DNA of 64,000 bases from Methanomassiliicoccales archaeon PtaU1.Bin124 (GTDB taxonomy: Archaea > Thermoplasmatota > Thermoplasmata > Methanomassiliicoccales > UBA472): assembly GCA_002067865.1 (NCBI GenBank), contig MVRC01000006.1:124001-188000 (forward strand), in the 5' to 3' direction. The notes under the pieces were generated by a model that ran no database searches, was not told where the DNA came from, and saw only the letters and a program-made list of their open reading frames with translations. Below are positions 43,638-64,000 of this stretch, piece after piece. The position numbers and the translations under genes were made by a program. Positions within the stretch are counted from its first letter, which is position 1, and each line of letters begins with the position of its first letter.

Positions 43638-43647
43638 CCTTACCTCT

Positions 43648-47164: not shown

Positions 47165-47486
47165 ATCCATCCAAGTATTTCGGCTTGAGGCCCCAGATAA
47201 CACGGTCCATCAATTATTCATAAAAAGGTTGTTTACTTCCTTGATTTCGGTGTCGCTCTTTTTCTGCGCATATGAGTGGATATCGTGATTAAGAAATATA
47301 ATTGGCCATCCGGCTGAGTGAAGTGAACTAATTATAAGAATTATATCGAAAAGCTTATTTGGTGTGTAGTCTCAGATAAGCTCCTCTTTACACGAATCAA
47401 GCTTTTAAGCAATAATCAAATAAAATAATGTGGGAATAAAAAAAAGTTTAGTCGGTTTAAAAGTTGGCCGACCATTCAGTTACAAT
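47165..47486. other. Intergenic region with a possible gene remnant
   Basis: A 322-base AT-rich region. It holds no complete gene but contains the frame described at 47210-47371. A run of eight A at about 47449 lies just beyond the 3' end of the small gene at 47487-47651 and reads as a T-run on that strand. Confidence 0.45.
47210..47371 (-). pseudogene. Possible gene remnant (about 53 codons, no start codon)
   Basis: On the minus strand an open frame from just after a TGA at 47374 to the TGA at 47210 reads with coding-like composition (PNKLFDIILIISSLHSAGWP near its start, ending EIKEVNNLFMNN), yet has no ATG, GTG or TTG. It looks like the C-terminal end of a degraded protein. I do not recognise the family, and a chance frame is possible. 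Confidence 0.3.
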
Positions 47487-47651
47487 TTACGCGCCCTCTG
47501 GAGCAACCTCGTTCTCGTCGTCTCCATCCAGAACATCGCTGATCTGTTCCTCAATTACATCGACCAGTTCACTTGCATCGCTCTCACTAAGTCCATTTCT
47601 CACAAGGGCCTCTTCCAGCTCAGCTAGAATTTTGATTATTTTCCTGTCCAC
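47487..47651 (-). CDS. Small acidic protein, 54 residues (GTG start)
   Basis: A GTG-started frame with a strong AAAGGAGGT ribosome site 7 bases before it. The product is 54 residues: a basic helix (DRKIIKILAELEEAL), a second helix (LSESDASELVDVIEEQI) and an acidic tail (DVLDGDDENEV). Nothing in it suggests a family. It is divergent from the AbrB-like gene with 167 bases between, and is too short for most gene callers. Confidence 0.7.
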   Translation of the reverse strand: MDRKIIKILAELEEALVRNGLSESDASELVDVIEEQISDVLDGDDENEVAPEGA

Positions 47652-47818
47652 GGCATTACCTCCTTTTAATTTGTACCCTATTCTATTCTAGGGTTGTAGT
47701 GGATAATTAGCAGTAATGGTTAAATAGGTTTGCATGGGAAATATTAATAGATTTAACAACACGGCTACAACGGATAGATTAAGTAAACCTAGACCAATGC
47801 ATGTTCAAGGTGTGAAAA

Positions 47819-47971
47819 ATGAGACTCCTAGGTACTGTCGAAGTGATGACCAACAAGAGGGTCACCATTCCAAACAAATTGCTCGAGGTCTTGAAAGCCA
47901 AGGAAGGAGACTTTCTATTGTTCTATGAGGACGATGATGGAAAGATTATTGTAAAGATGGAGAAAGGCTGA
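47819..47971 (+). CDS. AbrB/SpoVT-like swapped-hairpin DNA-binding protein
   Basis: A 50-residue protein: RLLGTVEVMTNKRVTIPNKL followed by LEVLKAKEGDFLLFYEDDDGKIIVKM. This is the full AbrB/SpoVT swapped-hairpin domain (strand, Arg/Lys-VTIP loop, helix, strand pair), as in MazE and small archaeal regulators. AAGGTG lies 5 bases before the ATG. It probably binds DNA as a dimer. As antitoxins often have this fold, it may pair with a nearby gene such as 47487-47651 or 48185-49234, but no partner is adjacent in the same direction without a gap. Confidence 0.85.
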   Translation: MRLLGTVEVMTNKRVTIPNKLLEVLKAKEGDFLLFYEDDDGKIIVKMEKG

Positions 47972-48184
47972 TTGTCTGTGCATCAAATCAATACATTATG
48001 GTGGTAACAATCAGTCGTGATTACAAGTGGTTCGTCATAATAACCATCTCGCTTTATAAAAGGGTAATTCACAATTTCATTGAGTTATCAACATGAAACA
48101 AATTGTCGAATTATAGAATTTGTTCAATAAAGTTATCAATCAATTATTTGTTCCTTGAGACCTCGATATTGGGGGAGATTTGAT

Positions 48185-49234
48185 ATGACAGAGGAGATCC
48201 GGTTGTGGAGAATCGATAGAACTGGCATGCTCATGGAAATTCAGCGGAACAAATTATCTCTGGAGGATCGTTTAGAACAATGGATATTGAACGATATCAC
48301 CATTCTTTCTGATAATCTGCTCATAATAGGGGAACAGGTTCAAACCCTAGGAGGGCCGCTGGATATATTGTGCCTCGATAGTAACGGCGATACTGTCATC
48401 GTCGAATTAAAACGAGGAATGACACCTAGGGAGGTAACTGCCCAGGCATTGGATTACGCTTCGTGCATTAAAGATATGACGGCCGAGAATCTTGATACCA
48501 TCGCCAAGGAATTTTTAACGAGAAAGAATGGTGCCAGTAAGTCACTAGCTGAGGAATTCGAGCAAAGATTTGGTATTGAATTACCCGATGACATAAATCA
48601 AAGGCAGAGAATTATAATTGTCGGCGCCAACATAGATGACAGCACGGAAAGGATAATCCACTATCTCTCGGAAAATTACGACATCCCCATCAATGCTTTG
48701 ACATTTCAATATTTCAAGAACGATGGCGACGAGTATCTCGGAAGAGTTTTCCTTCTTGATCCAGAGGTGATCGAGAGTAAAATGGGAAAGACTGGTACAC
48801 GTAAGAGGACGCCATATCTAAAGTACGACGAACTTGTCGAAATTGCTAAGGAAAATAAGGTTTTAGAACTCTATACCAGACTCTGGGAGGGATTAAGAAA
48901 TATCTTCTCAGGGACAGCGACCAACGTTTCAAGCCTCACATTTAATGTCATATCAGAGAATGGTCGTAATATTGTGATGGGGCTAGTTCCAACAGATAGC
49001 GACGAGGACAGGGGATTGAAATTCTACCTCTATGCGAAAAGATTGACTGATTTCATCGGGATATCTCGTGAAGATCTGATAGCTGCACTCCCAGTGAACA
49101 AGAAGGACTGGTGTTATACTGAGGCGAACAGGGGAAATGAGTTCTGGTCCGGCTATGAAGGATATTTCTCGAACATGGGAGAAGCTAATCGATTCATAGA
49201 AAAGTTATTACAATCAAAACAAAAAATAAATTGA
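48185..49234 (+). CDS. NucS/DUF91-like PD-(D/E)XK nuclease
   Basis: A 349-residue protein. Residues 28-95 match the catalytic core of NucS-type or DUF91 endonucleases: GGPLDILCLDSNGDTVIVELKRG with Asp60, Glu74 and Lys76, then Gln87 in EVTAQALDYAS. The rest (LGRVFLLDPEVIESKMGKTGTRKR, then a C-terminal half of unknown fold) differs from archaeal NucS (EndoMS), which has about 250 residues, so this is a relative and not the mismatch enzyme itself. The start at 48185 has GGGGGAG 8 bases before it. A restriction-type role is likely by context. Confidence 0.8.
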   Translation: MTEEIRLWRIDRTGMLMEIQRNKLSLEDRLEQWILNDITILSDNLLIIGEQVQTLGGPLDILCLDSNGDTVIVELKRGMTPREVTAQALDYASCIKDMTAENLDTIAKEFLTRKNGASKSLAEEFEQRFGIELPDDINQRQRIIIVGANIDDSTERIIHYLSENYDIPINALTFQYFKNDGDEYLGRVFLLDPEVIESKMGKTGTRKRTPYLKYDELVEIAKENKVLELYTRLWEGLRNIFSGTATNVSSLTFNVISENGRNIVMGLVPTDSDEDRGLKFYLYAKRLTDFIGISREDLIAALPVNKKDWCYTEANRGNEFWSGYEGYFSNMGEANRFIEKLLQSKQKIN

Positions 49235-49333
49235 AACGATTTCCATTTCATATCATAATATTATGGTTTAATATTCAACTGGATGAATGGGTGCATTATA
49301 ACCAACGTACTTGGTGGTTTGGAGACGATGGTT

Positions 49334-49822
49334 TCAGTATCTACGATTGGCGAAAGGGAACTTGCCAAATTTCTTGACAAATTCCCTTATCATAGATTTC
49401 TCCAACTCTTCCGGATCAACGGTATTTGCCACCAACATCCAGCATACTAGGAGTTCCCTGCTGTCCGCCAGTTGCCAGATGTGACGCCCTCCTTTATGTG
49501 GAGCTGGCGCCCCCTCACCGAACCTCATGTATGTCCTGATCCTCTTCCTCAGTGACGTACCGGCCTTTCCAATGTACATTATTTCAGTCCCTTCCACCCA
49601 TTTTTCCTCGAGGACGCTCAACGGTACATTAGGATCTATTCCCTTGAACCGGCCCCCGCTCCCGGTCTCTAAGAAGACCGGTGGCTCCTCAGTACATCGC
49701 AGTATCAGATAGACACCAGGTACATCATCGATGATCGAACATCCATTCTGCATCAGCCACTCTATACTGACAAATCCTTTCAATCCAGAGTGCGCCTCAT
49801 CGACTGGACCGTTCGTTGACAC
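49334..49822 (-). CDS. GIY-YIG-like nuclease domain protein
   Basis: A 162-residue protein with a GIY-YIG-type layout: GVYLILRC at the first strand, then IMYIGKAGTSLRKRIRTYMRFG as the YIG strand and basic helix, GGRHIWQLA, a Glu in the EELEKSMIREFVKKFG helix, and final FPFANRR. GIY-YIG domains cut DNA. It stands alone between the NucS-like gene and the AddAB-like genes, transcribed with the latter direction. A repair or defence role is possible. Confidence 0.8.
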   Translation of the reverse strand: MSTNGPVDEAHSGLKGFVSIEWLMQNGCSIIDDVPGVYLILRCTEEPPVFLETGSGGRFKGIDPNVPLSVLEEKWVEGTEIMYIGKAGTSLRKRIRTYMRFGEGAPAPHKGGRHIWQLADSRELLVCWMLVANTVDPEELEKSMIREFVKKFGKFPFANRRY

Positions 49823-49908
49823 GATTCACCATTCCATTACAGACTTAAAATTATGGTGCGAATATTTTCATCAACCACCTTTTTAAGGGGGTACTCCACG
49901 GCTTCGAC

Positions 49909-52900
49909 TCATATCGGTACCACGTCCCCAGTCTCTGTCAGATAGATGTACGAGGTCACTTTCCCATCGACCATCTTTCCAACTGCTTTCGCATAGATGT
50001 CCATCTGTTCCTTGAAGACCGATATCTGTTCCGCGATATGGGGTTCCAACGGGTCGATGGTCTTGTAATCTATCAGCGCCCATCCCCCCTCCCTTAGCTG
50101 GACTAACCTATCAATGATCCCTAAGTAAACGACATCTCCTTCCCTTAGCTCGAAGGGCAGCTCTTTAAGGTCCTTGCCATTATCAGCGATGTTCATCATC
50201 AACTCTGATGTCATGAACCTCTTGTGCATCCCCTCCAACCCATGGACAACTTTCCTCGTTTCCTCTTCATTGATTTCCAAACGGGAAGATTTCAGCAGCT
50301 GCAAAGGGGACTTTCCACGCATTACTTCATGGACCAAAGTTCCATAGTCCGCAGCCGTCATCCCATTTTTTTGTAGGATGGATTTCGTCTCCGACATCAC
50401 ACCCCCTTTGAACTTCACACCCTCCTTGTCACCCGCCGATGGCCTGATGACCTCCACCTTCCCTTGAATTCTTGATTTCTCATGATGTTCCCACGAGCTC
50501 AATCGAGGGGGCACTGAGTATGGTGCATGGGAAGTAAATATTCCAAGATGGGGATTGTTCTCATTGACCCTCAGATGGACGATGCAATCTCCAGACTCAC
50601 AAATTCCCTTCCTTCCTTCTGCCAGATCCTCATCGTTGATAGCAAGGCCGTTCATCGTCAAGGCGAACCAATCCCTACCATCTGATTTGATCTCATCCCA
50701 TGTACCGTTCTTCCTACCTCTGCTACCCAGGATGACAAGATGATCCATTGCACGCGTGGCTGCCACATAGAACAGTCTCAGGTTCTGGGCCTTGGACTTC
50801 TGCGAGAGCACATCCTTGGCACGACGGAAGGGATATGGTTTGTAAGTCCCTGAGAGATCGGGGATAGGAACCTCCGTCCATATTCCGTCATCGTCTATCG
50901 CAGCCACGTCCTTCTCTCCCTGGGGAGGTGTCTCCGTCTCAGGAATGATGACGATGGGGAACTCAAGGCCTTTGGATGCATGAACGGTCATTATCCTGAC
51001 AGCGTTCCCTGTGGCCTCCAGCTTGGCCTGCCCTTCCTTATCTGATTCATCTACGTTAAGTTGCAGCCATTTGACCAGGTCGCGAAGGCCAAAGAAACCT
51101 TCCTGCTCCCTTTGCCTGACCATGTCCACCAGCATCTCCACGTTGGCCATGGCCTGTCTGCCTGTCGGTATGCCGGCGTATATACCAAATATCCCGGTCC
51201 GGTCGATCAACTGGTTCATCAGCTCGCTCACTGGGACCCTACCGGTCTTCCGAGACAGTTCGTCCAGCACCTCTGCGGCAAACCTTAGTTTAACATTTCC
51301 TTTCTCCGAGCGTTTGCGAAGCTTTCCATACAGATGACCGTAAGGCGCTGACGTGACGATACCATACAGATCCTCATCAGATAGCCCGAAGTATGGCGAT
51401 CGCAACAGGCCATAAAGGGGAATATCATCCATATGGTTGGCCAAGAAGCACATGGCGTTCCCGATGTCCATCACCTCTTGGCTCTGGAAGAAACCAACCC
51501 CCTTTTCGACTACGTAAGGTATGTCTTTCTCTGACAATGCACTCTCATAATACCGAAGATTTGTCCTTCCTCTCAGAAGCACAATTATGTCCCCATACGA
51601 GGGTCTCCTGACCTCCGGAGACGCATCATTCTTCGTGGGATAGATCATCCGGTCATCGGAGCTGACAAGATACTCTATCTCGGCTACTGTGGCCTGGGCC
51701 ATGTTCAGCTTGGCATCCCCCTCACCCTTGGGGACGGTGACCACGGTCACTGAACCTTGTTCTCTTTTACGGTGCGGGTCCACATGGGAGTAGCGGAACT
51801 CCCATTCCTTCTCCTCAGAGGTCATAATGCTGGAGAAGAGAGAGTTCACGAACGTCACTATGGTGTTCGAGGAACGGTAATTGCTCCCTAGCTCCTCCTT
51901 TTCTCCTCCCAGGTCCTTTTCCACGAATCGTAGCATCTCCTTGAAGATGGTGACGTCCGCTCCGCGGAACAAATAGATGGATTGCTTGCCGTCGCCGACC
52001 ACGAACAACTTGTCCTCTTCATCGCCGAGCAATGCGCGCACGATGCGGTCCTGGGGAAGGTCGGTGTCCTGATACTCATCGACCAACACCTTCGAGAACC
52101 GTTCCTGAAGTAATTTTAGCACCTTATTTTCTGGAATGGATGGGTCAAGGAGGTCCTGCACGATTATCAGCATATCATTGAAATCGATCGCTTGTCGTTC
52201 TCTCTTCATGGCATCCATGATCGTCGAGAATCGTTCGTATAGCACCTTTACTCCCAACAGGTGCTCAGTTGCCATTATTATCGAATCAGGATTAAGCTCA
52301 TGCTCCAGGACCTCTAGGTCCCCTTTCATCTCCTCCGCCAGATCCGCGAGGATGGCGTAGCTATCCTTCAGCTTTTGTTTATCATCTTTCATCCTTTTCT
52401 TGTCGCCCATGTTGCGATTGCCTTTCAGTCTTAGAAGGCATATTAGAGAGAGCAATCTCGACTCATCATCACCGCTCAGGGCATCTTTCACGAGCTGTGT
52501 TGCCTGAAAAAGATAGCATTCTGATCTATCGCCATCCTCCTTGGCGTAAACATTACACAGACCGGACAGAGTCTGTAAGGCCTGGGTCACTTCTGAACAA
52601 AAAAGTAAATCGCGAACCTCTTTCACGTAAGCGGTGAGCAGCTCCTTGTAATACCTTTTAAACTTCTCAGCATCGGACATCATCTCGATTGCCGGCAGCG
52701 CTTTCACCCTTCTCTCATATAGGAAGAATAGGAGTTCCTTGAGTCTCCAAGACGTTGCGACGGATGCCACTTTCACCATTATCTCTCGAGATTCATCTTG
52801 GGACCCCAGCTCATTCCACGTCTCCTCCATGAGCAGGGTCAGGTCCATACCTTCAAGCACCTTCACATCCGCAGGCATCCCGGCCTGGAGATGGAACTCC

Positions 52901-53166
52901 CTCAGCACCTGGCTGCAGAACGAATGGAACGTCTGCACCTGGGCCCAATTGAGCTGGTCGAACAGCTCCTCGTCCTTCAGGTCCAATGCCTTTTCCCGGA
53001 TCTTCTCCCTCATGTTGGCTGCGGCCTCATCGTTGAAGGTCAGCGCGAGGATGGAAGACACTTCGATTTTCTTCTCGACATGCTCATAGTACTGCCCAAC
53101 GAGACGCGTCGTCTTCCCTGAACCTGCCGATGCCCCTACACATATGGAGCATTCTTTCTTCGACAT
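49909..53166 (-). CDS. addA: AddA-like UvrD-family helicase with C-terminal RecB-type nuclease
   Basis: A 1085-residue superfamily 1A helicase-nuclease. Motif I GASAGSGKTTRL is at residues 12-23; the others are QAIDFNDML, KVLVDEYQDTDLPQ, VVGDGKQSIYLFRGAD, IMTVHASKGLEFPIVIIPE and LFYVAATRAMDHLVI. The C-terminal PD-(D/E)XK nuclease has GIIDRLVQ, ALIDYKT and a later Gln. It overlaps the AddB-like gene by one base (TGATG). AddAB processes double-strand ends for recombination and destroys linear foreign DNA; it is uncommon in archaea, which normally use HerA-NurA. Confidence 0.85.
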   Translation of the reverse strand: MSKKECSICVGASAGSGKTTRLVGQYYEHVEKKIEVSSILALTFNDEAAANMREKIREKALDLKDEELFDQLNWAQVQTFHSFCSQVLREFHLQAGMPADVKVLEGMDLTLLMEETWNELGSQDESREIMVKVASVATSWRLKELLFFLYERRVKALPAIEMMSDAEKFKRYYKELLTAYVKEVRDLLFCSEVTQALQTLSGLCNVYAKEDGDRSECYLFQATQLVKDALSGDDESRLLSLICLLRLKGNRNMGDKKRMKDDKQKLKDSYAILADLAEEMKGDLEVLEHELNPDSIIMATEHLLGVKVLYERFSTIMDAMKRERQAIDFNDMLIIVQDLLDPSIPENKVLKLLQERFSKVLVDEYQDTDLPQDRIVRALLGDEEDKLFVVGDGKQSIYLFRGADVTIFKEMLRFVEKDLGGEKEELGSNYRSSNTIVTFVNSLFSSIMTSEEKEWEFRYSHVDPHRKREQGSVTVVTVPKGEGDAKLNMAQATVAEIEYLVSSDDRMIYPTKNDASPEVRRPSYGDIIVLLRGRTNLRYYESALSEKDIPYVVEKGVGFFQSQEVMDIGNAMCFLANHMDDIPLYGLLRSPYFGLSDEDLYGIVTSAPYGHLYGKLRKRSEKGNVKLRFAAEVLDELSRKTGRVPVSELMNQLIDRTGIFGIYAGIPTGRQAMANVEMLVDMVRQREQEGFFGLRDLVKWLQLNVDESDKEGQAKLEATGNAVRIMTVHASKGLEFPIVIIPETETPPQGEKDVAAIDDDGIWTEVPIPDLSGTYKPYPFRRAKDVLSQKSKAQNLRLFYVAATRAMDHLVILGSRGRKNGTWDEIKSDGRDWFALTMNGLAINDEDLAEGRKGICESGDCIVHLRVNENNPHLGIFTSHAPYSVPPRLSSWEHHEKSRIQGKVEVIRPSAGDKEGVKFKGGVMSETKSILQKNGMTAADYGTLVHEVMRGKSPLQLLKSSRLEINEEETRKVVHGLEGMHKRFMTSELMMNIADNGKDLKELPFELREGDVVYLGIIDRLVQLREGGWALIDYKTIDPLEPHIAEQISVFKEQMDIYAKAVGKMVDGKVTSYIYLTETGDVVPI

Positions 53167-56100
53167 CAGATGACCCCCTGTTCAAGTGTCATGCGGAGTA
53201 TCCGCATCTCATCCTTGCGGCAGATCTTGCTGAAAAGGCAATACTTGCATCTTACCCCATCAAGGTCCTTCACAGGGTGGAACCTGCCTTTGGCTATTCC
53301 TTCCATCGCCATCTTCACATTTTTACAGCAGGTTTGAAGGTCCGCATGAATGTCGATCTTAGAGCCAGTATCGATGCCTAACTCCGCGAAATGTTCTGGA
53401 GCAGCAGTTATGAAATTCATGCCGAACTCTGGCCCTTGCCTGAGCTGATAGTAGGCACCCCCCACTGCATTGAGCCCGAGGAGCTCCTCACAGGCCATCA
53501 TATAGAGGAGCAGCTGCATGTTGTACCCTTTCAGCATGTGCTTCCTTTCCGGTGCGGACCCTGTCTTATAATCGATGATGATGAAATTGCCATTGCCATC
53601 CGTGTCCACTCGGTCGACCTTCCCCCGGATCATCAACTTCGTGCCGTCTATGGATAAGATCGCAGGGTTTTTCGTAGACCGAGGGTCCATGCTGTCGGAG
53701 GGGCCCTTAATGCCGAACCCATACTCTAGGTATTCCGGGGTCCACCTGGGCATATCCATCTCAGCTTGAAAATCGATGAACTTCCCCAAGGAACCGTTCA
53801 TCTCTCCATCACCAATCATCGAACGTAATGCCGCGGCCTCTTGGGCACTGGTCTCGAACCCATCCCTCGGGAACATGCTCCTAAGCTCAGCCTTGATGGC
53901 GTCGAGGTCTTCATCGTCCGAGACCATTCCTAATCCTCGCTCGGCCCTGCTGCGATAGAATCGGAACAATGCCTCATGGGCAAGGTTACCGATCCTGAGG
54001 GCCTCTGAGTCTTCGGTTCCTTCCATCGGTTGCAATCTCAGGACGTAGCTCAGGTAGTATCTCATCGGACACTTACAATAGGTCTCGAGCATGGTGGCCG
54101 AGAATCCATTCTGTTCTCGTCCTCCGTTGATGTTCCCGATCATCTCCTTATCACCGAATACGCCATCATAGGGCGATGTGTAGGGCCCATGGCGTTTCGT
54201 CAGTTCGATGTTCATCCTCTCGCAAAGGGTATCCGGCGAGATGCTCGAATTGTTCAGCCACGACCCTTCGTGTTCGATGGTCTTCCCAGCAATTGAGCCA
54301 CCCAGGTAGATCTGGGAAGAGCGGTGGGAGTCTAGAAGGGGAAGCTTCTCCATTTCACCAAGTTCGGTATTCTTCTGGATGTCGATAAGGAACGGCGATG
54401 GAAGGGCTTTCTTCCCTCCTTGGTAAGAAGGGTAGGAGATGTTCACCGAATCAGCGCTGAGCAAGGCCATGAGGAAGTAGTACCTCTCCTGGCGCAGGAC
54501 GTCCTCCTGAGATAGTAGGCCAAGGTCCTTGACCTGCTTTGAGTTCAAGAAAGGATGCCTAATGCTCAATTTGGGCATATCCCCCTCGGTCGTGAACAGC
54601 AAGAAGCTGTGCTTGAAGTGACGACCAGCGAGGGAACGATACCCGGCCACGTTCACCGCCCTTTCGTACAAACCCCCGCTGTGATAGGTAGCCCCAGCGA
54701 TCTCACGCTTCAGTTCAGAGGTGAACTCACCGAGAGAGATGACATCATCACTGGGGTATCCTCCACCAGCAATCAAACTGTCTAAGAGGCGTGATAGGGT
54801 GGAATAAGCTGCATTCTCAGGATCATCATCGTTCCATCGGATGCGCTCCAGCGAATCGGTCCAACCCATTTTCTTAAGTGTGATACGGAACCTACTGACG
54901 TGCTCAGCGATGGTTCCTTTGGCATTAAGACCGCTCAGCTCTTTGAAGAGAGCGTCGATCTGTTTTCTGATTCGAAGAAGCCGTTCTGTTTCCTTCGCAC
55001 ACCACGACCTTTGACCCTCGGACATCTCGGGGCGAGAGGAACGCACCTTCTCTATCAGGGCGTCGATCCCTTTGAGCCAAGCCTCCTGGCCCTTGCTGAC
55101 CCGAATGATGAGCGAGAGGCGGTCCACCTCTTCATAATGCAATTTATCTCCATCCACCTCCCAGCAGATGTATGGGCTCGAAATCAGCTTGTTCAGATGA
55201 TCGGGAGAATATCCTTGGGTGATCGTTTCTAGGACCTCGATGGCTGTCTGGACCGCAGGCGAGCATCCCAATGGCGTTCCTGTGTCAGACTTGAACGGTA
55301 TATGGAAATCGTTCAGCACTTCCTTGATCAAGGGCAATACTTCCCGCCGCTCAGGAAGGAAAATGGCTATTTCTTCAGGGTCGGTGCCGTCCTTAATGAG
55401 CTCAGAGATGCGTTGCGCAGCTTGTCTGGCCTCGGAGGCGGGGTCGAGGAACTTTGCAATGAACACCTCAGATGAGAGATCGACCTTAGGATCATCGGAC
55501 CATTCCCTCATCATATGAGTCCTTCTAATCGTCCGATCGTCCGAAGGAAGATCGATTATCTCCATATCCTTAACCAAGTCGATGATCTGCTGACCATAGA
55601 CCTTCATCGTCCCAGGAATGAATGGGTGGTGATAGACAAGCTTATCGCAATTCCTAGCCAATGCACGAAGGACGGCGATCTGAGAGTAAGTAGGTTCGAA
55701 CGGACCTAGGATGACCAGTTTCTTGAACAGCGGTCTTTTTCCGCACCAAGCATCAAGATTGGACGCGACCTTAAGGCGTATGCTGATAGAGTCTAGAAGA
55801 TGCTCATCCTCCAACTTTTTTTCATATAACGAGAGTAGAAGGTGAATGTTGACTGGAAATAGGTCGTCCACATGATATTTATTGAGGTTGGCGCCGAAAT
55901 CCTGGATCGTGTGGAGTACGAGTATTAGGTCATCGACCACGCCGTCCCGGAGCTCCCCATCTTCGAATAAAGTTGGGAAATCTTTGGCATTCTCCATCAA
56001 TAGGGAGATTATGATGTTTCGAAGGCCAATGCCACTGACCTGACCGACCTCATTCTCGTATTGATCGAAAATGTATCCGACGATGTCATCCAGGTCAGTG

Positions 56101-56321
56101 ACGCAGAAGAGAGGGACCGTTTTACCAAATAATAGTGATGACCTGATGTGCGCGGCCATTCCCGGTCGGGGCACAATGAGACCAACGTCCAATGGTGCCT
56201 TTTTAAAATCTTCAAGGAATTCCCCGAGGGCTGATTTATAAAGCTCTCTCGGACCCCCTCTGATGAACTCGATCTTTCCCACGAGCAGAACCTTGTTCCA
56301 GACTTGAAAAAGGTTTGCCAA
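53166..56321 (-). CDS. addB: AddB-like nuclease subunit with C-terminal Fe-S RecB domain
   Basis: A 1051-residue protein resembling AddB/PDDEXK_1. It lacks a Walker A in the N-terminal helicase-like part. The C-terminal nuclease shows TYCKCPMRYYLSYVLRL, a middle GKVDRVDTDGN and IIIDYKTGSAPE, and a closing CKYCLFSKIC, so four cysteines can hold a 4Fe-4S cluster. It precedes the AddA-like gene in the same operon, as in bacterial AddBA. The presence of both subunits argues for a complete enzyme. Regulation and substrate recognition (such as a Chi-like sequence) cannot be seen. Confidence 0.8.
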   Translation of the reverse strand: MANLFQVWNKVLLVGKIEFIRGGPRELYKSALGEFLEDFKKAPLDVGLIVPRPGMAAHIRSSLLFGKTVPLFCVTDLDDIVGYIFDQYENEVGQVSGIGLRNIIISLLMENAKDFPTLFEDGELRDGVVDDLILVLHTIQDFGANLNKYHVDDLFPVNIHLLLSLYEKKLEDEHLLDSISIRLKVASNLDAWCGKRPLFKKLVILGPFEPTYSQIAVLRALARNCDKLVYHHPFIPGTMKVYGQQIIDLVKDMEIIDLPSDDRTIRRTHMMREWSDDPKVDLSSEVFIAKFLDPASEARQAAQRISELIKDGTDPEEIAIFLPERREVLPLIKEVLNDFHIPFKSDTGTPLGCSPAVQTAIEVLETITQGYSPDHLNKLISSPYICWEVDGDKLHYEEVDRLSLIIRVSKGQEAWLKGIDALIEKVRSSRPEMSEGQRSWCAKETERLLRIRKQIDALFKELSGLNAKGTIAEHVSRFRITLKKMGWTDSLERIRWNDDDPENAAYSTLSRLLDSLIAGGGYPSDDVISLGEFTSELKREIAGATYHSGGLYERAVNVAGYRSLAGRHFKHSFLLFTTEGDMPKLSIRHPFLNSKQVKDLGLLSQEDVLRQERYYFLMALLSADSVNISYPSYQGGKKALPSPFLIDIQKNTELGEMEKLPLLDSHRSSQIYLGGSIAGKTIEHEGSWLNNSSISPDTLCERMNIELTKRHGPYTSPYDGVFGDKEMIGNINGGREQNGFSATMLETYCKCPMRYYLSYVLRLQPMEGTEDSEALRIGNLAHEALFRFYRSRAERGLGMVSDDEDLDAIKAELRSMFPRDGFETSAQEAAALRSMIGDGEMNGSLGKFIDFQAEMDMPRWTPEYLEYGFGIKGPSDSMDPRSTKNPAILSIDGTKLMIRGKVDRVDTDGNGNFIIIDYKTGSAPERKHMLKGYNMQLLLYMMACEELLGLNAVGGAYYQLRQGPEFGMNFITAAPEHFAELGIDTGSKIDIHADLQTCCKNVKMAMEGIAKGRFHPVKDLDGVRCKYCLFSKICRKDEMRILRMTLEQGVI

Positions 56322-56372
56322 TTATTGATAATAGCGAGAAACCACTGAAAAATTGTCCAGCATTAATTTACT

Positions 56373-56885
56373 CTACAGATCCAGAAAATGCCCGTCATCG
56401 ATCTCTTGTAATCCATCCACAATTATTCTTTTCCAATCATCGAGATTTCTATATGAAACCGAATGAAATATTACACCATTAATTACATTCCTCGTTCCAA
56501 AATTATCATCATTGGTGAATACTATCCGTTCTATATCTCTCGGGTCAATCGCCCAACTATTAACGAGTTTATTAGAAATTTTTTGAATTTGTTCGACAAC
56601 CTTTTTCCGGTGTTTCCTTCTGTTCCCACAAGCAGTAGATCCAGTATCACCTGTGAGGAATTTTGTTTCCACCACTATTAATTTATTGTCATTCGAAATA
56701 AAAATAAGGTCGACCTTTCCATCGTTGCTCATTTCATTTGGCAAAGGTCTCTCATAAAGGATAAGTTCCGCCTTTTTACCGATGATGTTCTCAATGTTAT
56801 CAACGAAATAAGCTTGGAGCAAACATTCCTTCTCTAATGGAAGTGCCACTATGCCTCGAAAATAATATTTCGCCCCGGCGAGCAA
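56373..56885 (-). CDS. Small PD-(D/E)XK-like nuclease next to a DNA methyltransferase
   Basis: About 170 residues from a TTG codon at 56885; there is no ATG or GTG in frame, and an earlier open stretch to about 56944 (NSIEAFGNQCKDDQ) suggests that the true start is a non-standard codon or is missed. Residues about 58-75 (VDLIFISNDNKLIVVETKFLTG) carry the Asp and ETK of a PD-(D/E)XK core. It ends the nrd-methyltransferase operon, with 76 bases between its start and the methyltransferase stop. As a methyltransferase partner it is a plausible restriction enzyme; that is inference. Confidence 0.6.
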   Translation of the reverse strand: MLAGAKYYFRGIVALPLEKECLLQAYFVDNIENIIGKKAELILYERPLPNEMSNDGKVDLIFISNDNKLIVVETKFLTGDTGSTACGNRRKHRKKVVEQIQKISNKLVNSWAIDPRDIERIVFTNDDNFGTRNVINGVIFHSVSYRNLDDWKRIIVDGLQEIDDGHFLDL

Positions 56886-56961
56886 ATCAGGTTGATCATC
56901 CTTACATTGATTGCCAAAGGCTTCAATCGAATTTATTGTATCAGCTCAGGCAGGTCATTGG

Positions 56962-57822
56962 TTAGAATAGATCGCATTGGTATCGAGATCTTAGCTTATA
57001 ATAATTAAAACCATCACGATAATTATAAACTTCGATTGATTTTTTAATCCTGGGTATTGTCACATTTTTGCATATATCATTTTCATCATTCGTCACGAGT
57101 ATGAATTTTCTCCTTCCTCCATCGAATTTATTCAACGACATCGTCGCATGTCCCGTTGTGCCTGAACCTGCAAAGAAATCTAAAATTATCGAATCTTTTT
57201 GCGACGATATCCTAATAATCTCTTCCAGCAACCGCATCGGCTTTGGAGTAGAGAACATCTCTCTTTTACCCAATAGTTGAGCGATCTCGTCCTTCGCGGA
57301 TGATGTTGTCCCCAATCCCTTGATTATCGATTCCATGGGTTTTCCATTACGCATGTTGGAAAAAACTGTGTTTTTCTTATCCATATAGCAGAGCACGATA
57401 TACTCATGAGCGGATTTGATATTGAAAACAGGTTTTTCGACTCGGTTCATATCGAACGGCTCATCGATTTTTGGCCACACCAGGATGTTGACATTCTCTT
57501 TTCCAAATAGATCATAACATATCTCTAACAGCGAGACGAGTTCGTTTTCATCAATATTGATGAACATCGATCCTGCATCGCTCATCAAAATCTTCGCTAA
57601 TGCAAGTCTTTCCTTGATAAACGTCGACCATCCATTTTCGAAGTTTGAATCTCTGTAACCGATATGGCTGATGTCTGTGTTGTAGGGCGGATCAATCGTA
57701 ATGACATCGATTTTCCCAGAAAATTCTTCTTGCAGATACTCCAAGGCTGTGATATTTTCAGATTCAATGATCATATTTTCACTGAGAGCATTGCCAAAGG
57801 ATTCGACCAGCTCGAGTTTCAT
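56962..57822 (-). CDS. Beta-class DNA N4/N6 methyltransferase
   Basis: A 286-residue enzyme of the N6_N4_Mtase family with the catalytic motif IDPPYNTD at residues 43-50 before the SAM motif (ILDFFAGSGTTGHATMSLN) in the C-terminal third, the order of beta-class/type III enzymes such as Mod. It is shorter than typical Mod proteins (about 600 residues) and lacks a long target-recognition insert, though residues 100-175 could serve. Its start overlaps the LRR gene stop (ATGA), tying it to the nucleotide-metabolism operon. It may protect or mark DNA within that system. Confidence 0.88.
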   Translation of the reverse strand: MKLELVESFGNALSENMIIESENITALEYLQEEFSGKIDVITIDPPYNTDISHIGYRDSNFENGWSTFIKERLALAKILMSDAGSMFINIDENELVSLLEICYDLFGKENVNILVWPKIDEPFDMNRVEKPVFNIKSAHEYIVLCYMDKKNTVFSNMRNGKPMESIIKGLGTTSSAKDEIAQLLGKREMFSTPKPMRLLEEIIRISSQKDSIILDFFAGSGTTGHATMSLNKFDGGRRKFILVTNDENDICKNVTIPRIKKSIEVYNYRDGFNYYKLRSRYQCDLF

Positions 57823-59474
57823 CGGTATCTTACCTCGGTATTGCTGCCGAAGAAAGTGTTCACAGCAATTTTCGTTCCTTTACCTATCTCCAGGTTTTTT
57901 AATTTAGGACAGTATGCAAACGCCCACTCTCCTATGCTAGAAACGCCATCTGGTAAAACAACACGCTGTAGGTTTGAGCAACCACTGAAAGCACCGCGAC
58001 TTATTGTTTTCACGGACGGAGGGATCTCTATCTCTTTCAGACTCTCACAACCTGTAAAGGAGTTACGACCAATGCTCAACACACCTTGTGATATACTAAC
58101 TCCATTAAAGGCTGCACGACTGGTACAGCAAATTAACTCTAATCCATCTTTATCATACAGTATGCCATCTTCAACTTTGTAATAAGGACTTAGACATATG
58201 ATTTCCAGATTGCTACAATTGGCGAACGGGTTGTATCCAATCTGCCTTACATTTTCGGTGATGACGATACGCTTTAATCTTCTACAATTCCAAAATGAAT
58301 TCCTTCCGACCGTCCTGACAGATCGTGGAATTACATACTCATCTTGGTCGGTACCCAATGAATAATGGATTAGAGTTGTCTGTTCTTTGTTCAGCAATGA
58401 ACCATCAGTATACACAAAATTAGGACTTCGATTCTCCAGAGTAATATTTTCGCAATCTGAGAAAGCATTGTTCCCAACGAAGCGAACATTCTCAGTAATT
58501 ACGACCTTTTTCAAATGACGATTCTTATAGAAACTATGTTTTCCGATCCATTCAACGGTCAATGGTATTTCATATCTCTCCGCCTTCATGTGTGAGCCAT
58601 AATGGATCAACCGTTTCTCGTCCGAATCAAAAAGAATTTCTTTGATAAGATGGAAGTGTGGGCTTTCGTTATTGATCAATAGATTGGCACTGCCAGCGAA
58701 TGGATCGTCTCCTATCTTCTCAATTGACGATGGAATATTGATCATTTTCAAATTATCACAATAAATGAACGCATCCCCACCGATGCTCCTCACACCATCT
58801 GGTATTGTAATTTCTTCTAGGAAGGTACAGTTCCAAAATGCTCCCGATTCGATTTTTTCAATCCCATGAGGTATGACCACATTCTTCTCTTTACCAATAT
58901 ATTTTAAGAGCACGTCGTTTTTTACTAAAAAATCGTCTGAATAAACGTTTTTTGAGGCAATATTGTGTGGATTGAATGAGAATGGATATATGTTATCCTC
59001 GAAAACGCCGGTTGAAAATCTTTTCCCCTTTTCAAGATACTCATACTTGAAATCGATAAGTCCACCAGATAACTTTGAGGTGTAGATTATCACATCACTA
59101 TTACCCAATGTTGCGCTTACAGCTCGCTCATAATCCTCCCCCCATTGTTCACAGATGATCTGAAGGAAAGGGACATCATCTTTGACCAGTGCTAGATTCC
59201 GTTCATTTGTTAACGACAAATTATCTGGAAGATAGCCAATTCTTAAGAGTCTATCGATACATTCCAAGATAACAAAGTCCTTGTGATCTGTAAGAGGATA
59301 CCATTCATCCTTGAACATAAATCGTTGTTTCTCTGATTCAATTCTGATTTTTAATGTCCCATAATCCTTTTCAAAAATATCTGGCCCCATCTCACGATAT
59401 TCTAGAATCCAGTAAAGAATGACATATTTCATGTCGATAAATAGGGTATCGGCGACAATTCGGTCCTTGTTCAT
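57819..59474 (-). CDS. BspA-type leucine-rich repeat protein, no signal peptide
   Basis: A 551-residue protein. The first 150 residues are of unknown fold; from about 160 on there are repeated LRR_5 units of the form x-x-IPxGVxxIGxxAFxxCxxLKxIxIP, for example EKIESGAFWNCTFLEEITIP, RSIGGDAFIYCDNLKMINIP and RTVGRNSFWNCRRLKRIVIT. BspA repeats are protein-binding and usually occur on cell-surface proteins, but here there is no signal peptide or membrane anchor, so it is probably cytoplasmic. Position inside the operon, with ATGA overlaps at both ends, suggests a sensor or scaffold. The function is unknown. Confidence 0.85.
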   Translation of the reverse strand: MNKDRIVADTLFIDMKYVILYWILEYREMGPDIFEKDYGTLKIRIESEKQRFMFKDEWYPLTDHKDFVILECIDRLLRIGYLPDNLSLTNERNLALVKDDVPFLQIICEQWGEDYERAVSATLGNSDVIIYTSKLSGGLIDFKYEYLEKGKRFSTGVFEDNIYPFSFNPHNIASKNVYSDDFLVKNDVLLKYIGKEKNVVIPHGIEKIESGAFWNCTFLEEITIPDGVRSIGGDAFIYCDNLKMINIPSSIEKIGDDPFAGSANLLINNESPHFHLIKEILFDSDEKRLIHYGSHMKAERYEIPLTVEWIGKHSFYKNRHLKKVVITENVRFVGNNAFSDCENITLENRSPNFVYTDGSLLNKEQTTLIHYSLGTDQDEYVIPRSVRTVGRNSFWNCRRLKRIVITENVRQIGYNPFANCSNLEIICLSPYYKVEDGILYDKDGLELICCTSRAAFNGVSISQGVLSIGRNSFTGCESLKEIEIPPSVKTISRGAFSGCSNLQRVVLPDGVSSIGEWAFAYCPKLKNLEIGKGTKIAVNTFFGSNTEVRYR

Positions 59475-60076: not shown

Positions 60077-61773
60077 TTATTCGATCTCCTTGTGGCAACT
60101 TCGGCCTTTTTTCCTTTAGTAAAAAATTCTAAATCCTCAAGATATCCAGATACTCTTCTGATCCTCTTTATCTTGTTCCCTCCACAATTTGGACATTGGT
60201 CAAATACTCCTGATTGACCGCACGAAAGGCAAGAATCTACAGGGAAATTTATTCCCAAATAGCTCACACCATTTTTTACTGCCACGTTTATGATATCGAG
60301 AATAGCTAGAGTATTTGTCAGTGGGGCCGATGAGAACTCCACATAAGAAATGCAACCTCCATTGCACAATATGTGGAACGGTCCTTCCAAGCGAATTTTA
60401 TCGAATGGGCTCAAGCCAGAATCCACATTGGCATGGAATGAGTTGGTGTAAAATCCTTTTTCGATGACAGGATGATTAAACAATTTCGCATCCAAATCAG
60501 GGAATCTACCAGAAATGTATTCCCCAGAAGTTGCTAGTAATGAAAAGTTAAGGCCGTTCTCCTTGCGGAAGCGGTCCACCGTTTGCCTCATGAATCTGAC
60601 GAAATCGAGAGAGACATCACATGTTTCCTGCGATTCGTAGAATCTCTTGCCAGTCAATATTTCAATAGCTTCCGAAAGGCCGATGAATCCAATCGACAGG
60701 GTTCCATTTTTAAATATTTCATTCAATGATCGACAATTTTGGACATCTCCTAGCCATAAATTGTGAGCTGAATTGCATGGAAAATCCTCAACATCCAACT
60801 GTGATAATCTATTGTATCGATCAAGAAGAGATAATTTCACTGAATTTGCGGTTTCCAACCAGGCCTCTTTGAATAATCTAATCCTTTCCTCGGTGTCAGA
60901 ATCTCTATTCATTGAGTCGATTTCTAATGCAATTCTCGGAAGGTTGATCGTGATATAATCGATGTTTCCTCTTCCAATCGTCGTATCTTCTCCAAATTCG
61001 TTCTGGACCACCCGGGTCCTGCAACCCATGATACCAATTTTACTCGCATCCACGTTTATATTGGGCGCCGAGTCGCAAAGGAGATAGGTTGGCACCATTT
61101 TCCGCGAAGTAGAGCTCAATGCTAATTGGAAAAGGTCATAGTTGGGGTCTTTGGGATCATGATTTATGCCGCTCTTAACTTTGAAAATGATGTTAGGTCT
61201 GATGTATTCCGGTGAGGAGTTACCAAAATATTCCAATACAAATTTACTAACGGCTCTGCCAAAATCATTTTCTGACAAACCAAGGTTCAGCGATACATAA
61301 TAGCTAACCTGGCCACAGCGCTCCCTGGCGTTGTTGATCCAATCAATGAATGATTCAATGTTTTCACGGAGGGTAATAAGATTATAATCGGTGGGGCTTA
61401 AAGAGCACCGTTTGAATATTCGAGATATGTCCTCATCAAAATTCGCAAAGCCCATTCCACCAGACTGTTCATTGGCAAGCTCAACGATCATCCGTCTGAA
61501 ATAGTTGAATGTCTCCATTATTTTACGGGAATCGGAATATTGTTCAAAGCGTTCAAATGGAAAACCTTTCAACAGATCTAAAGTTAGACAGTTGTAGGTT
61601 TTCCCATATGCTTCGAGATCGTGGAGATGGATCTTCCCACTTCTGTGTAGGTCGGCTGCCTCCGGGTCTATCTCACTTAAGATCTGTTTTTTAATTGCAT
61701 CAGTCCCGATTTCATAGACCGCACCAACATACGTCTTACGTTGAGAGGCGTTATCAAACTGGATGCCCTTCAT
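60073..61773 (-). CDS. nrdD: Anaerobic ribonucleoside-triphosphate reductase, glycyl-radical subunit
   Basis: A 566-residue class III ribonucleotide reductase that turns NTPs into dNTPs. The thiyl cysteine lies in IMGCRTRVVQN, a Zn site in CLSCGQSGVFDQCPNCGG, and the glycyl radical glycine in RVSGYL about 22 residues from the end. It is shorter than the E. coli enzyme (712) mainly because it lacks the N-terminal ATP-cone, so it may not be controlled by dATP in the usual way. It overlaps nrdG and tmk by 4 bases each. The AT content is that of the island and not of the core. Confidence 0.9.
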   Translation of the reverse strand: MKGIQFDNASQRKTYVGAVYEIGTDAIKKQILSEIDPEAADLHRSGKIHLHDLEAYGKTYNCLTLDLLKGFPFERFEQYSDSRKIMETFNYFRRMIVELANEQSGGMGFANFDEDISRIFKRCSLSPTDYNLITLRENIESFIDWINNARERCGQVSYYVSLNLGLSENDFGRAVSKFVLEYFGNSSPEYIRPNIIFKVKSGINHDPKDPNYDLFQLALSSTSRKMVPTYLLCDSAPNINVDASKIGIMGCRTRVVQNEFGEDTTIGRGNIDYITINLPRIALEIDSMNRDSDTEERIRLFKEAWLETANSVKLSLLDRYNRLSQLDVEDFPCNSAHNLWLGDVQNCRSLNEIFKNGTLSIGFIGLSEAIEILTGKRFYESQETCDVSLDFVRFMRQTVDRFRKENGLNFSLLATSGEYISGRFPDLDAKLFNHPVIEKGFYTNSFHANVDSGLSPFDKIRLEGPFHILCNGGCISYVEFSSAPLTNTLAILDIINVAVKNGVSYLGINFPVDSCLSCGQSGVFDQCPNCGGNKIKRIRRVSGYLEDLEFFTKGKKAEVATRRSNK

Positions 61774-62213
61774 GCAGACTCCCTCAAAGAAATGAACCTC
61801 TGGTTCTTTGAACCGACATAGGCCATGGTCGAACAGGTCAATTCTTTGATGAACCTGCCAACCTTGATGTAGCTTAGATGGTTCAATACGGCTTCGGGGA
61901 TTTCTTCCAGCTCATGGCTTGTGTATAACGCCACATCGAATCCATTCAGATGTGATAATAATTCTATCAAGGCATCGCATTGTAGAAGAGGTTCACCACC
62001 CGAGATCGTAATCCTACCATTCTCGGCATGTTCTATTAGGTATCGTGCAAGAACTTCAACTTCCATCATCTCGCCAGCATTTGGATTCCAGGTGCTAGGG
62101 TTGTGACATCCGTCACATCTCCTCTCACATCCCTGAAGATATACGACCACCCTGATTCCCGGGCCATCCGCGATAGATCCACGAATGTCTATTGAATTTA
62201 CTGAAATTTTCAT
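61770..62213 (-). CDS. nrdG: Anaerobic ribonucleotide reductase activase (radical SAM)
   Basis: A 147-residue radical-SAM enzyme that generates the glycyl radical in NrdD. The cluster motif CERRCDGC follows DGPGIRVVVYLQG, and TISGGEPL binds SAM. The start at 62213 is taken because KISVNSIDIRGSIADGPG is the usual N-terminus and a GGTGGGG ribosome site precedes it; the frame is open to 62327 into the divergent gene. It heads the operon and overlaps nrdD by ATGA. Confidence 0.9.
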   Translation of the reverse strand: MKISVNSIDIRGSIADGPGIRVVVYLQGCERRCDGCHNPSTWNPNAGEMMEVEVLARYLIEHAENGRITISGGEPLLQCDALIELLSHLNGFDVALYTSHELEEIPEAVLNHLSYIKVGRFIKELTCSTMAYVGSKNQRFISLRESA

Positions 62214-62326
62214 ACCTTCGTTTCCCCACCTAATAATGGCCTTACCCCCGACAATGGTTATAAAAAACTGCACGTTATTACCGTTATCATCGTTATAGTT
62301 GAACAGTGGTGTTCGATTTGTCCTCA
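62214..62326. promoter_or_regulatory. Divergent promoter between nrdG operon and CARF-like gene
   Basis: The 113-base gap is the only control region for both the nrd operon (minus) and the CARF-like regulator (plus). A TATA-like TTATAG at about 62293-62298 lies 29-34 bases from the ATG at 62327, which fits a leaderless transcript of the regulator. Short TTAT-containing repeats occur around 62277-62298. Confidence 0.5.
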
Positions 62327-63166
62327 ATGAAAGGTGAGACCGTAATCATATCGTGCGTAATTTTTGAAGTGGCCAGTGTAGTTGAACCAGCTATCTTTCT
62401 GAGAGCGACTCGATTGCACCTCATAAGACCGATGGATCGACCCGGAACGAGGAATTTCCGTTCTTATCACGAATTCCATAACGAGGTCAGAAAGCAACTA
62501 GCTGAACGGTTACCTGATTGTGAGGTTTTATCATACCCCGCAAAAACTCATAATTTTACTGAAATGCTAAGGCTCGTACTTGGTCTCTTAAAAAAGGAGA
62601 AGGAATTAGATAATGGTCGAAAGGAAATATTGGTGAATATCACCGCCGGATCACCAGAATATTCGGCAGCAGCAACAATGGCCTCGATGATGATACCTGA
62701 TGTTAAACCATTTAATACAAGCGTGTTTGAATTCACTGTCGATGGGGATAGGGTTCGAGAGGTTTTCTATGAAGGTGATCGACCTATTGGCCTAGCTAAA
62801 AAGGTCAATGATCCTACCCCCATTCCAGTTTATAAAGTTGATATGCCTTCCGAGGACATCATCGAAGGTTTAAAAATATTTAAAGAATGTAATAAAAAGA
62901 CTGATCGCAACGTTATAAAGAACCTTGAAAATACCATATATTGGAAATATTCTTCCCAGACAGATCAGGATACAAATAAAAAGGAGAAATCCAAGCAAGC
63001 CAAAACGATGTATTATCGACGAAATTTTAAAGAAAAATGGTTTGCTAATGGCTGGATTACTGATGATGGGAAATTGCTTACAAAGTTGGGAGAGGATGCT
63101 GTAGCAACGTTTTATCACAAACCTCCAGAACCAGAGAAGATATCGAAAGAAAATATGGCTAACTAA
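62327..63166 (+). CDS. CARF-like domain transcription factor (DUF6293/HFX_2341-like)
   Basis: A 279-residue protein. The first 150 residues fit a Rossmann-like CARF domain: an opening strand (VIISCVIFEVASVVEPAIFLRATRLHLIRPM), then EILVNITAGSPEYSAAATMASMM, whose VN-TAGS segment corresponds to the ligand loop in stand-alone CARF regulators of the DUF6293/HFX_2341 type. The C-terminal 90 residues (IYWKYSSQ, RNFKEKWFANGWITDDGKLLTKLGEDAV) resemble a winged helix. CARF domains bind cyclic oligonucleotides made in CRISPR and other defence responses. It is divergent from nrdG and may regulate that operon. A GTG at 62306 is an alternative start. Confidence 0.75.
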   Translation: MKGETVIISCVIFEVASVVEPAIFLRATRLHLIRPMDRPGTRNFRSYHEFHNEVRKQLAERLPDCEVLSYPAKTHNFTEMLRLVLGLLKKEKELDNGRKEILVNITAGSPEYSAAATMASMMIPDVKPFNTSVFEFTVDGDRVREVFYEGDRPIGLAKKVNDPTPIPVYKVDMPSEDIIEGLKIFKECNKKTDRNVIKNLENTIYWKYSSQTDQDTNKKEKSKQAKTMYYRRNFKEKWFANGWITDDGKLLTKLGEDAVATFYHKPPEPEKISKENMAN

Positions 63167-63923
63167 GGTCTGCAAATTTTCTTTTAAGATAATTGGAAGA
63201 CTTTAAGGCAGAACTTATTGTCCTAGCTTCGATGATATAATTTCCTTTATACCCCTTCAATGCATGAAAAATATTAGCGAAATCTATCTTTCCATCACCT
63301 AAAGAGGAATGACTGTCCACTTGTCCATCGTTGTCGTGCAAATGAACATTGATAATTCGGTCCCGCAATTCAAGTATGGATGCGATTTGCCCAGTAGTAT
63401 TAGCATGACCGACATCAAAACAGATACCCAGGTCTGTGCCATCTATAAAACGCGACAATTCGCCTGCCGTCCTTCCAATAATCGAATCTTGATTTGCCAT
63501 ATTCTCAAGAGCTAGATTGACCCCCAGATCATTTGATATTCTATTCAGTTCTCCGAGGGATTCAATTAACTTATTCTCTGCTCTCGATTCAAAACCCCTA
63601 ACGCCCATCGGATAATATCCTGGATGAATAGTTACCAAATCTACATCGATCTGGGCTGCAATCTTGAGCGAAGTCGATATCTGTTCAACGGATTCCATTC
63701 TCATCTTTTCATTGATGGAGGCAATATTAACATCGAATATTGGTGCATGAATGGAATAGGTGAGATCATATGGGCTGGTAATGATTTTAAACCGTTTGGC
63801 GATGTCGAGCAAATATGGCTCGCTTTCAGTCAATATTTCCCAATGTTTGAAATGTGGTTCGATGGTTTTCAATGTCGCTTCTAAATCGGTAATGGTAAGT
63901 GAGGCAGATGAAATCCCGATCAC
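63159..63923 (-). CDS. Sugar-phosphate isomerase/epimerase-like TIM-barrel protein
   Basis: A 254-residue xylose-isomerase-like (AP endonuclease family 2) TIM barrel. Features are YSIHAPIFDVNIAS, LVTIHPGYYPMG (metal His), NLALENMA (metal Glu), GICFDVGHANTTG (Asp and His), NVHLHDNDG and DFANIFHALKGYKGNYIIEAR. The family includes sugar isomerases and endonuclease IV; which reaction this one performs is unknown. The GTG start at 63923 follows GGAGG by 10 bases; the open frame extends to 63965. Its 3' end overlaps the CARF-like gene by 8 bases, convergently. It could be the edge of the ordinary genome or a part of the island. Confidence 0.82.
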   Translation of the reverse strand: MIGISSASLTITDLEATLKTIEPHFKHWEILTESEPYLLDIAKRFKIITSPYDLTYSIHAPIFDVNIASINEKMRMESVEQISTSLKIAAQIDVDLVTIHPGYYPMGVRGFESRAENKLIESLGELNRISNDLGVNLALENMANQDSIIGRTAGELSRFIDGTDLGICFDVGHANTTGQIASILELRDRIINVHLHDNDGQVDSHSSLGDGKIDFANIFHALKGYKGNYIIEARTISSALKSSNYLKRKFADLS

Positions 63924-64000
63924 GTTATCAGAGCCTCCACTCGGAATCTGTACTCGCACAAACATAGGACATCGTATCTTCTATCGAAACCGGGCAATTC

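What the first reader, a model, noticed from the sequence alone, without database searches (positions are those of the whole stretch)
62327..63166. Stand-alone CARF-like transcription factor outside any visible CRISPR locus
The ligand loop VNITAGS and the opening strand pattern match DUF6293/HFX_2341-type CARF regulators, yet no CRISPR array or cas gene is in the window. That raises the question of which cyclase makes its ligand.
Basis: partly seen in the sequence, partly recalled or inferred. Interest (0 to 1): 0.6.

Follow-up and report, generated by a model that had tools for sequence, protein, structure and literature searches.

The report
CARF regulator with rebuilt ligand pocket
An archaeal gene-control protein of a known family has the fold that normally senses virus-alarm molecules, but its group has lost the usual contact residue and lives in genomes where the main known alarm makers were not found, so it probably senses something else.

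Summary
The gene is real. 62327-63166 encodes a 279-aa CARF + winged-helix protein of the DUF6293/HFX_2341 family: PF19810 scores 42.6 bits, cut-off 30, and the model's fold matches CARF proteins at Z up to 16.4. The premise that a cyclase must feed it is doubtful. The published CARF signature [DN]X[ST]XXX[RK] ends in Pro here. A K/R in that loop occurs in 0 of 32 members of the window's clade, against 8 of 10 canonical relatives; an acidic residue follows in 30 of 32, against 0 of 10. In Csa3, mutating the matching Arg abolishes cA4 binding. Among 61 genomes of the order, CARF homologues are in 20, and Cas10 in one, which has no CARF. Diadenylate cyclase is in 0 of 61, against the c-di-AMP idea published for HFX_2341. 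CARF genes lie near RecB-type nuclease genes, mostly AddAB (7 of 30 within 10 kb, 0.58 expected); the window has AddA-AddB 6 kb away. Likely role: a regulator of nucleic-acid repair or defence genes that senses something other than cyclic oligoadenylate. New variant of a known kind; ligand unproven.

The parts
62327..63166 (+). CARF + winged-helix regulator gene, 279 aa, DUF6293/HFX_2341 family
62336..62836 (+). CARF domain, residues about 4-170
   Evidence: VIA-align ranges in the model; PF19810 match at residues 6-130
62636..62662 (+). ligand loop after strand 4, residues 104-112 (NITAGSPEY); the usual K/R position is Pro110, followed by Glu111
62852..63112 (+). C-terminal winged-helix-like domain, residues about 176-262
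   Evidence: secondary structure of the model; whole-chain matches to CARF-wHTH proteins; DUF6293_C in 17 of 19 alignment members at E <= 0.01
62214..62326 (.). 113-base gap between the divergent CARF and nrdG start codons; possible promoter and operator region, no inverted repeat found
   Evidence: assignment as operator is inference
61770..62213 (-). nrdG-like activating enzyme, divergent neighbour
53166..56321 (-). AddB-like protein with a PD-(D/E)XK nuclease domain; candidate target
   Evidence: PF12705 E 5e-37; role as target is inference
49909..53166 (-). AddA-like UvrD helicase with a PD-(D/E)XK domain; candidate target
   Evidence: PF00580, PF13361 and PF12705; role as target is inference

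Best explanation
A one-component transcription regulator: an N-terminal CARF domain that senses a signal, joined to a C-terminal winged helix that binds DNA, probably as a dimer. It belongs to DUF6293/HFX_2341, but to a clade (found here mainly in Methanomassiliicoccales and in a few other lineages of the phylum) whose pocket was rebuilt: the K/R after strand 4 is gone, an acidic residue follows it, and PxGxExDR after strand 1 became CxTFExxK (Ser17 in the window protein). It therefore most likely does not read Cas10-made cyclic oligoadenylate. By analogy with RtcR, a CARF regulator of a family that mostly lacks the same K/R, it probably reads a nucleic-acid breakdown product or the state of the repair machinery and adjusts expression of repair or defence genes, with AddAB the best candidate target. 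Shown here: family, fold, pocket change, absence of the tested cyclases, gene linkage. Inferred: dimer, DNA binding, ligand class, target genes.
For: CARF fold at Z 16.4 (Csm6 6tug), both domains covered in Sis0811 and SSO1393. PF19810 over cut-off. K/R in loop residues 105-113 in 0 of 32 clade members against 8 of 10 outside; acidic at 111 in 30 of 32 against 0 of 10, with the clade supported at 0.931. The matching Arg98 of Csa3 is needed for cA4 binding (PMC8844856 passages). Cas10 in 0 of 20 CARF-bearing genomes; DAC 0 of 61; GGDEF 0 of 61. PD-(D/E)XK genes, mostly AddAB, within 10 kb of 7 of 30 CARF genes, 0.58 expected, plus a divergent UvrD-PDDEXK gene in L056. RtcR precedent (abstracts).
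Against: No binding or expression data. The register P110 = Arg98 rests on sequence motifs, not on a residue-level superposition. In most loci of family f2 AddAB is not near the CARF gene, and in the window it is 6 kb away behind other genes. 7 of the 11 genomes with an AddB like the window's have no close CARF homologue. The linkage null is uniform placement and was chosen after the linkage was noticed; defence genes cluster in general. The cyclase search does not cover all CD-NTases (one search is uninformative) nor cAMP makers. DUF6293_C scores below cut-off in the window protein.
Confidence: 0.42

Rival explanations
1. An ordinary DUF6293 global regulator like HFX_2341 (crr): it represses many metabolic and transport genes in response to a general cellular signal, and closeness to repair genes is incidental.
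For: Same Pfam family. HFX_2341 deletion mainly changes transport and metabolism genes, and it is not CRISPR-linked (PMC11434293). Most f2 loci show no AddAB neighbour.
Against: Pocket residues differ from the canonical members. The nuclease linkage exceeds chance. c-di-AMP, one signal suggested for HFX_2341, has no synthase in 61 of 61 genomes.
Confidence: 0.3
2. A genuine cyclic-oligoadenylate sensor whose ligand is made by an undetected or mobile cyclase, or arrives from a type III system carried by some strains or invaders.
For: CARF fold close to cA4 and cA6 receptors. Asn104, Ser/Thr106 and Gly108 of the loop are kept. CD-NTase coverage is incomplete.
Against: K/R of the loop lost in 32 of 32 clade members, where Csa3 R98A loses cA4 binding. 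Cas10 in 0 of 20 CARF-bearing genomes.
Confidence: 0.15
3. A local regulator of the divergent nrdG-nrdD-kinase genes, sensing a nucleotide or deoxynucleotide.
For: Divergent start codons 113 bases apart, with TATA-like stretches in the gap (the TATA reading is by eye).
Against: The nrd neighbourhood was not shared with any of the other loci fetched. No inverted repeat in the gap.
Confidence: 0.08
4. A ring nuclease of the SSO1393/Sis0811 type that clears cyclic oligoadenylate.
For: Match over both domains to Sis0811 (Z 14.7, 184 residues) and SSO1393 (Z 11.6, 190 residues).
Against: The conserved motif-II lysine of the cA4 ring nucleases (Lys168 in Sso1393; PMC8844856 passages) has no K/R counterpart in the loop of any of 32 clade members. 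No substrate source was found.
Confidence: 0.05

Closest known systems
HFX_2341 (crr), DUF6293, Haloferax mediterranei (PMC11434293, parts 1-2 of 5 read)
   Same: Same Pfam N-terminal family, CARF-like plus winged helix, alone outside CRISPR, ligand unknown
   Different: Comes from a lineage with diadenylate cyclase (H. volcanii control rings). The window's clade differs from the canonical-type sequences sampled in the phylum in both pocket motifs; HFX_2341 itself was not aligned here
Csa3 (Sso1445), Saccharolobus solfataricus (PMC8699464 and PMC8844856, passages)
   Same: CARF + winged-helix regulator; fold match Z 12.6 over 194 residues, rmsd 13.5; Csa3 also affects DNA repair genes
   Different: Csa3 binds cA4 through Arg98 and sits in a CRISPR locus; here that position is Pro and there is no CRISPR linkage
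RtcR (PMC7790460 and PMC9650030, abstracts and section lists only)
   Same: CARF regulator of a family mostly lacking the K/R after strand 4; controls repair genes; signal is not oligoadenylate
   Different: Bacterial sigma-54 activator with an AAA+ domain, which is absent here; RNA rather than DNA repair
SSO1393/Sis0811 ring nucleases
   Same: CARF and winged-helix architecture with alignment over both domains
   Different: The conserved catalytic-loop lysine has no counterpart in this clade
MM_0565, Methanosarcina mazei (PMC7465815, passages)
   Same: Archaeal CARF-wHTH DNA-binding dimer with an unknown effector
   Different: Sits at a type I-B CRISPR locus in a genome that also has type III; not compared by sequence here

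Membership tests
DUF6293 / HFX_2341 family | N-terminal domain PF19810 above the curated cut-off | tested here: met
   42.6 against 30 bits; 19 of 19 alignment members match at E <= 0.01
DUF6293 / HFX_2341 family | C-terminal winged helix PF22665 | tested here: inconclusive
   16.2 bits, below the cut-off of 27, in the window protein; 17 of 19 members match at E <= 0.01
CARF superfamily | CARF (Rossmann-like) fold | tested here: met
   the rows shown by Foldseek and VIA-align are CARF proteins, Z up to 16.4
Csa3-type cyclic-oligoadenylate-responsive regulators | K/R at the end of [DN]X[ST]XXX[RK] after strand 4 (Arg98 in Csa3) | tested here: not met
   Pro110 in the window; K/R in 0 of 32 clade members
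Csa3-type cyclic-oligoadenylate-responsive regulators | Cas10 in the same genome | tested here: not met
   0 of 20 CARF-bearing genomes
Csa3-type cyclic-oligoadenylate-responsive regulators | binding of cyclic oligoadenylate | not testable with these tools
   needs purified protein
CARF ring nucleases (SSO1393 type) | conserved motif-II lysine | tested here: not met
   no K/R in the loop of 32 of 32 clade members
RtcR | NtrC-like AAA+ domain with HTH | tested here: not met
   Pfam finds no AAA+ domain at E <= 1 in the 279-aa protein

The most novel reading that the evidence does not exclude
A branch of CARF regulators has switched from cyclic oligoadenylate to another cue, such as oligonucleotides released by a RecBCD-type helicase-nuclease or the enzyme itself, and works with AddAB in archaea as RtcR works with RtcAB in bacteria: a cyclase-free CARF signalling pathway for DNA repair or defence.
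Probability: 0.22. Interest if true: 0.8.

Novelty: new variant of a known kind. Interest (0 to 1): 0.5.

Why it matters
What CRISPR-free CARF regulators sense is an open question stated in the HFX_2341 paper. This order of archaea makes it sharply testable: no diadenylate cyclase found, no Cas10 in CARF-bearing genomes, and a clade-wide loss of the residue that holds cyclic oligoadenylate. If the ligand is a nucleic-acid fragment or a protein partner, CARF signalling is wider than the cyclic-oligoadenylate pathway, and AddAB-type nucleases in archaea would gain a dedicated regulator.

Tried and rejected
Cas10 as ligand source: rejected for CARF-bearing genomes. c-di-AMP: disfavoured for this order. 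GGDEF cyclases: none, but no archaeal control genome rang. DncV-like CD-NTases: the search rang in no control and says nothing. SMODS: 4 weak hits below cut-off in 61 genomes, none in the own genome; one of the four (G039) is CARF-bearing. cAMP makers were not searched.

Phage, plasmid or viral origin: no relative in viral contigs, plasmids or phages. Sequence relatives in the PDB: none for the protein at E <= 10; the alignment's best was a non-significant 8bao (Can2) at E 0.43. RNA elements at 30000-64000: none. Palindromic operator in the gap: none. Conserved nrd neighbourhood: not seen in the other loci. A first parse of the phylum-wide loci misread those on the minus strand and was replaced. 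Literature: CARF with AddAB, CARF domain with Methanomassiliicoccales, DUF6293, CARF with diadenylate cyclase, and CARF with helicase-nuclease gave no paper on this clade in the listings. The library lacks the 2020 CARF classification, so that paper may already describe this group; PADLOC's profile PDLC01878, which matches all 19 members, shows it had been clustered.

Full report
The gene and its family. The ORF starts at ATG 62327 and ends with the stop at 63166. Its N-terminal part matches PF19810 (HFX_2341_N) above the cut-off, while the DUF6293_C winged-helix profile matches at 16.2 bits, below its cut-off of 27. PADLOC's CARF3--CARF profile PDLC01878 covers residues 4-263 at E 7.8e-71. 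It is the only match to PF19810 in the window's assembly of 2.2 Mb. The named relatives found (Methanomassiliicoccaceae, Methanomethylophilaceae, Methanoplasma, Methanomassiliicoccus and one unplaced euryarchaeon) indicate that the window comes from Methanomassiliicoccales or a close neighbour.

Structure. An AlphaFold2 model from seven sequences has mean pLDDT 81.7 and pTM 0.78, with alternating strands and helices in the N-terminal half and a mostly helical C-terminus. Foldseek's best matches are CARF proteins. The second aligner gives Z 16.4 over 150 residues (rmsd 2.5) to Csm6 6tug, 14.7 over 184 residues spanning both domains (rmsd 5.6) to the CARF-wHTH ring nuclease Sis0811, 11.6 over 190 residues (rmsd 4.4) to SSO1393, and 12.6 over 194 residues (rmsd 13.5, so only the separate domains can fit) to Csa3 2wte. 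The DNA-binding C-terminus is supported by this architecture and by 17 of 19 homologues matching DUF6293_C at E <= 0.01, not by a curated hit in the window protein.

Pocket. A tree of 42 distinct homologues (12 near-duplicates dropped from 54; one of 30 phylum-wide loci, L085, not retrieved at E 1e-3) places the window in a 32-member clade (local support 0.931) with a 30-member subclade (0.953). The CARF signature reported in the literature is [DN]X[ST]XXX[RK] after strand 4 (PMC4012209 section 6). In the window it reads N104-I-T-A-G-S-P110. K/R occurs in loop residues 105-113 in 8 of 10 sequences outside the clade and 0 of 32 inside; position 111 is acidic in 30 of 32 inside and 0 of 10 outside. 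These counts are not independent events; they may reflect one ancestral change. After strand 1 the outside group reads mostly PxGxExDR and the clade CxTFExxK; at the last position the clade has K in 22, M in 6, R in 2, L in 1 and S in 1, the window. In Csa3 the Arg of motif 2 (L-x2-G-phi-R) contacts the central phosphate of cA4 and its alanine mutant lost cA4 binding; removing an acidic pocket residue elsewhere (E122) raised affinity about 145-fold (PMC8844856 passages). The register P110 = Arg98 is my inference from the shared motif. The 2014 CARF survey noted that families mostly lacking this K/R, RtcR among them, might bind distinct ligands. [quoted passage not shown]

Who could make a cyclic ligand. 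The same 61 genomes (own plus 60 relatives) were searched for each family. Close CARF homologues: 20 of 61 (2 of 22 in the window's family). Cas1: 19 of 61, in 7 of 20 CARF-bearing and 12 of 41 others, so no association. Cas10 palm2: 1 of 61 (G025), not CARF-bearing. SMODS: 4 of 61 weak, none over cut-off. DAC: 0 of 61, with the control ringing in 11 of 14 genomes, including H. volcanii, Methanosarcina acetivorans and Methanocaldococcus jannaschii. GGDEF: 0 of 61, control 8 of 14, all bacterial. DncV-like: 0 of 61 but no control rang. The authors of the HFX_2341 study asked what the protein senses and suggested cAMP or c-di-AMP (PMC11434293, parts 1 and 2 of 5 read). For this order the c-di-AMP form of that idea is disfavoured; cAMP was not tested.

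Neighbours. The window's CARF gene is divergent from nrdG, nrdD and a thymidylate-kinase-like gene. On the same strand as these follow an LRR protein, a methyltransferase, a NERD-like protein, AddB (53166-56321) and AddA (49909-53166). In relatives, AddA/AddB-type genes (UvrD helicase with PD-(D/E)XK, or PD-(D/E)XK alone) lie next to or near CARF in L040, L044, L045, L046 and L049 (the L045 and L044 proteins belong to one sequence cluster), and a UvrD-PDDEXK gene is divergent from CARF in L056. Using 30 of the 31 CARF rows (one dropped: the upstream fragment of a gene already counted in G030) and the PDDEXK_1 matches in those 20 genomes, 6 of 30 lie within 5 kb (0.34 expected) and 7 of 30 within 10 kb (0.58 expected); no simulation of 200,000 reached either count. 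At 2 kb it is 2 of 30 (0.2 expected, P 0.016). One of the seven is a 385-aa PD-(D/E)XK protein (G042, CARF at 345572), not AddAB; the window itself counts only at 10 kb. The null is uniform placement with rounded genome sizes, so it does not remove a general tendency of defence genes to cluster, and the test was made after the linkage was noticed. One homologue (L038) is divergent from a Cas12a-Cas4-Cas1 operon, the only Cas1 linkage I noticed. A search with the window's AddB finds a relative in 11 of 61 genomes, 4 of them CARF-bearing; AddB proteins of the L046 and L049 type are not reached by that query.

Distribution. PF19810 is in 65 of 196 genomes drawn from the phylum. No relative was found in viral contigs, phages or plasmids by sequence.

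How it most likely works. Shown: family, fold, changed pocket, absence of the tested cyclases in CARF-bearing genomes, linkage to nuclease genes. Inferred: a dimer binds DNA through its winged helices; a signal other than cyclic oligoadenylate, perhaps a nucleic-acid fragment or a partner protein, changes that binding; repair or defence genes such as AddAB respond. I put this at 0.42: the pocket argument is the stronger half, the target argument the weaker.

Verdict.

Noticed in passing
window 38703-57822: Stretch that looks like a defence island: PLD-SNF2 helicase (38703-42362), OLD/GajA/AriA-like ATPase (45049-46881), PDC-S11-type nuclease (48155-49234), AddA-AddB, and a methyltransferase (PADLOC; Pfam).
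   Followed up: partly
window 56962-57822: 286-aa methyltransferase matching type III methyltransferase profiles of 500-1000 positions, next to a 170-aa NERD-like protein; it may be a shortened or remodelled restriction system.
   Followed up: no
window 57819-59474: 551-aa BspA-type leucine-rich-repeat protein placed between a nucleotide kinase and a methyltransferase.
   Followed up: no
L038 8214-15222: A CARF homologue divergent from a Cas12a-Cas4-Cas1 operon in a genome without detected Cas10.
   Followed up: partly
L054 7965-9995: Two CARF genes of this clade in tandem, divergent from a NYN-domain gene and near RecB-type nuclease and UvrD genes.
   Followed up: partly
61 genomes of the order (own plus 60 relatives): No diadenylate cyclase (DAC, PF02457) in any, although other archaea among the controls have it; this would be notable in its own right.
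   Followed up: no
window 63159-63965: Convergent TIM-barrel gene (AP_endonuc_2, CbiR-like below its cut-off) whose 3' end overlaps the CARF gene's 3' end by 8 bases.
   Followed up: no
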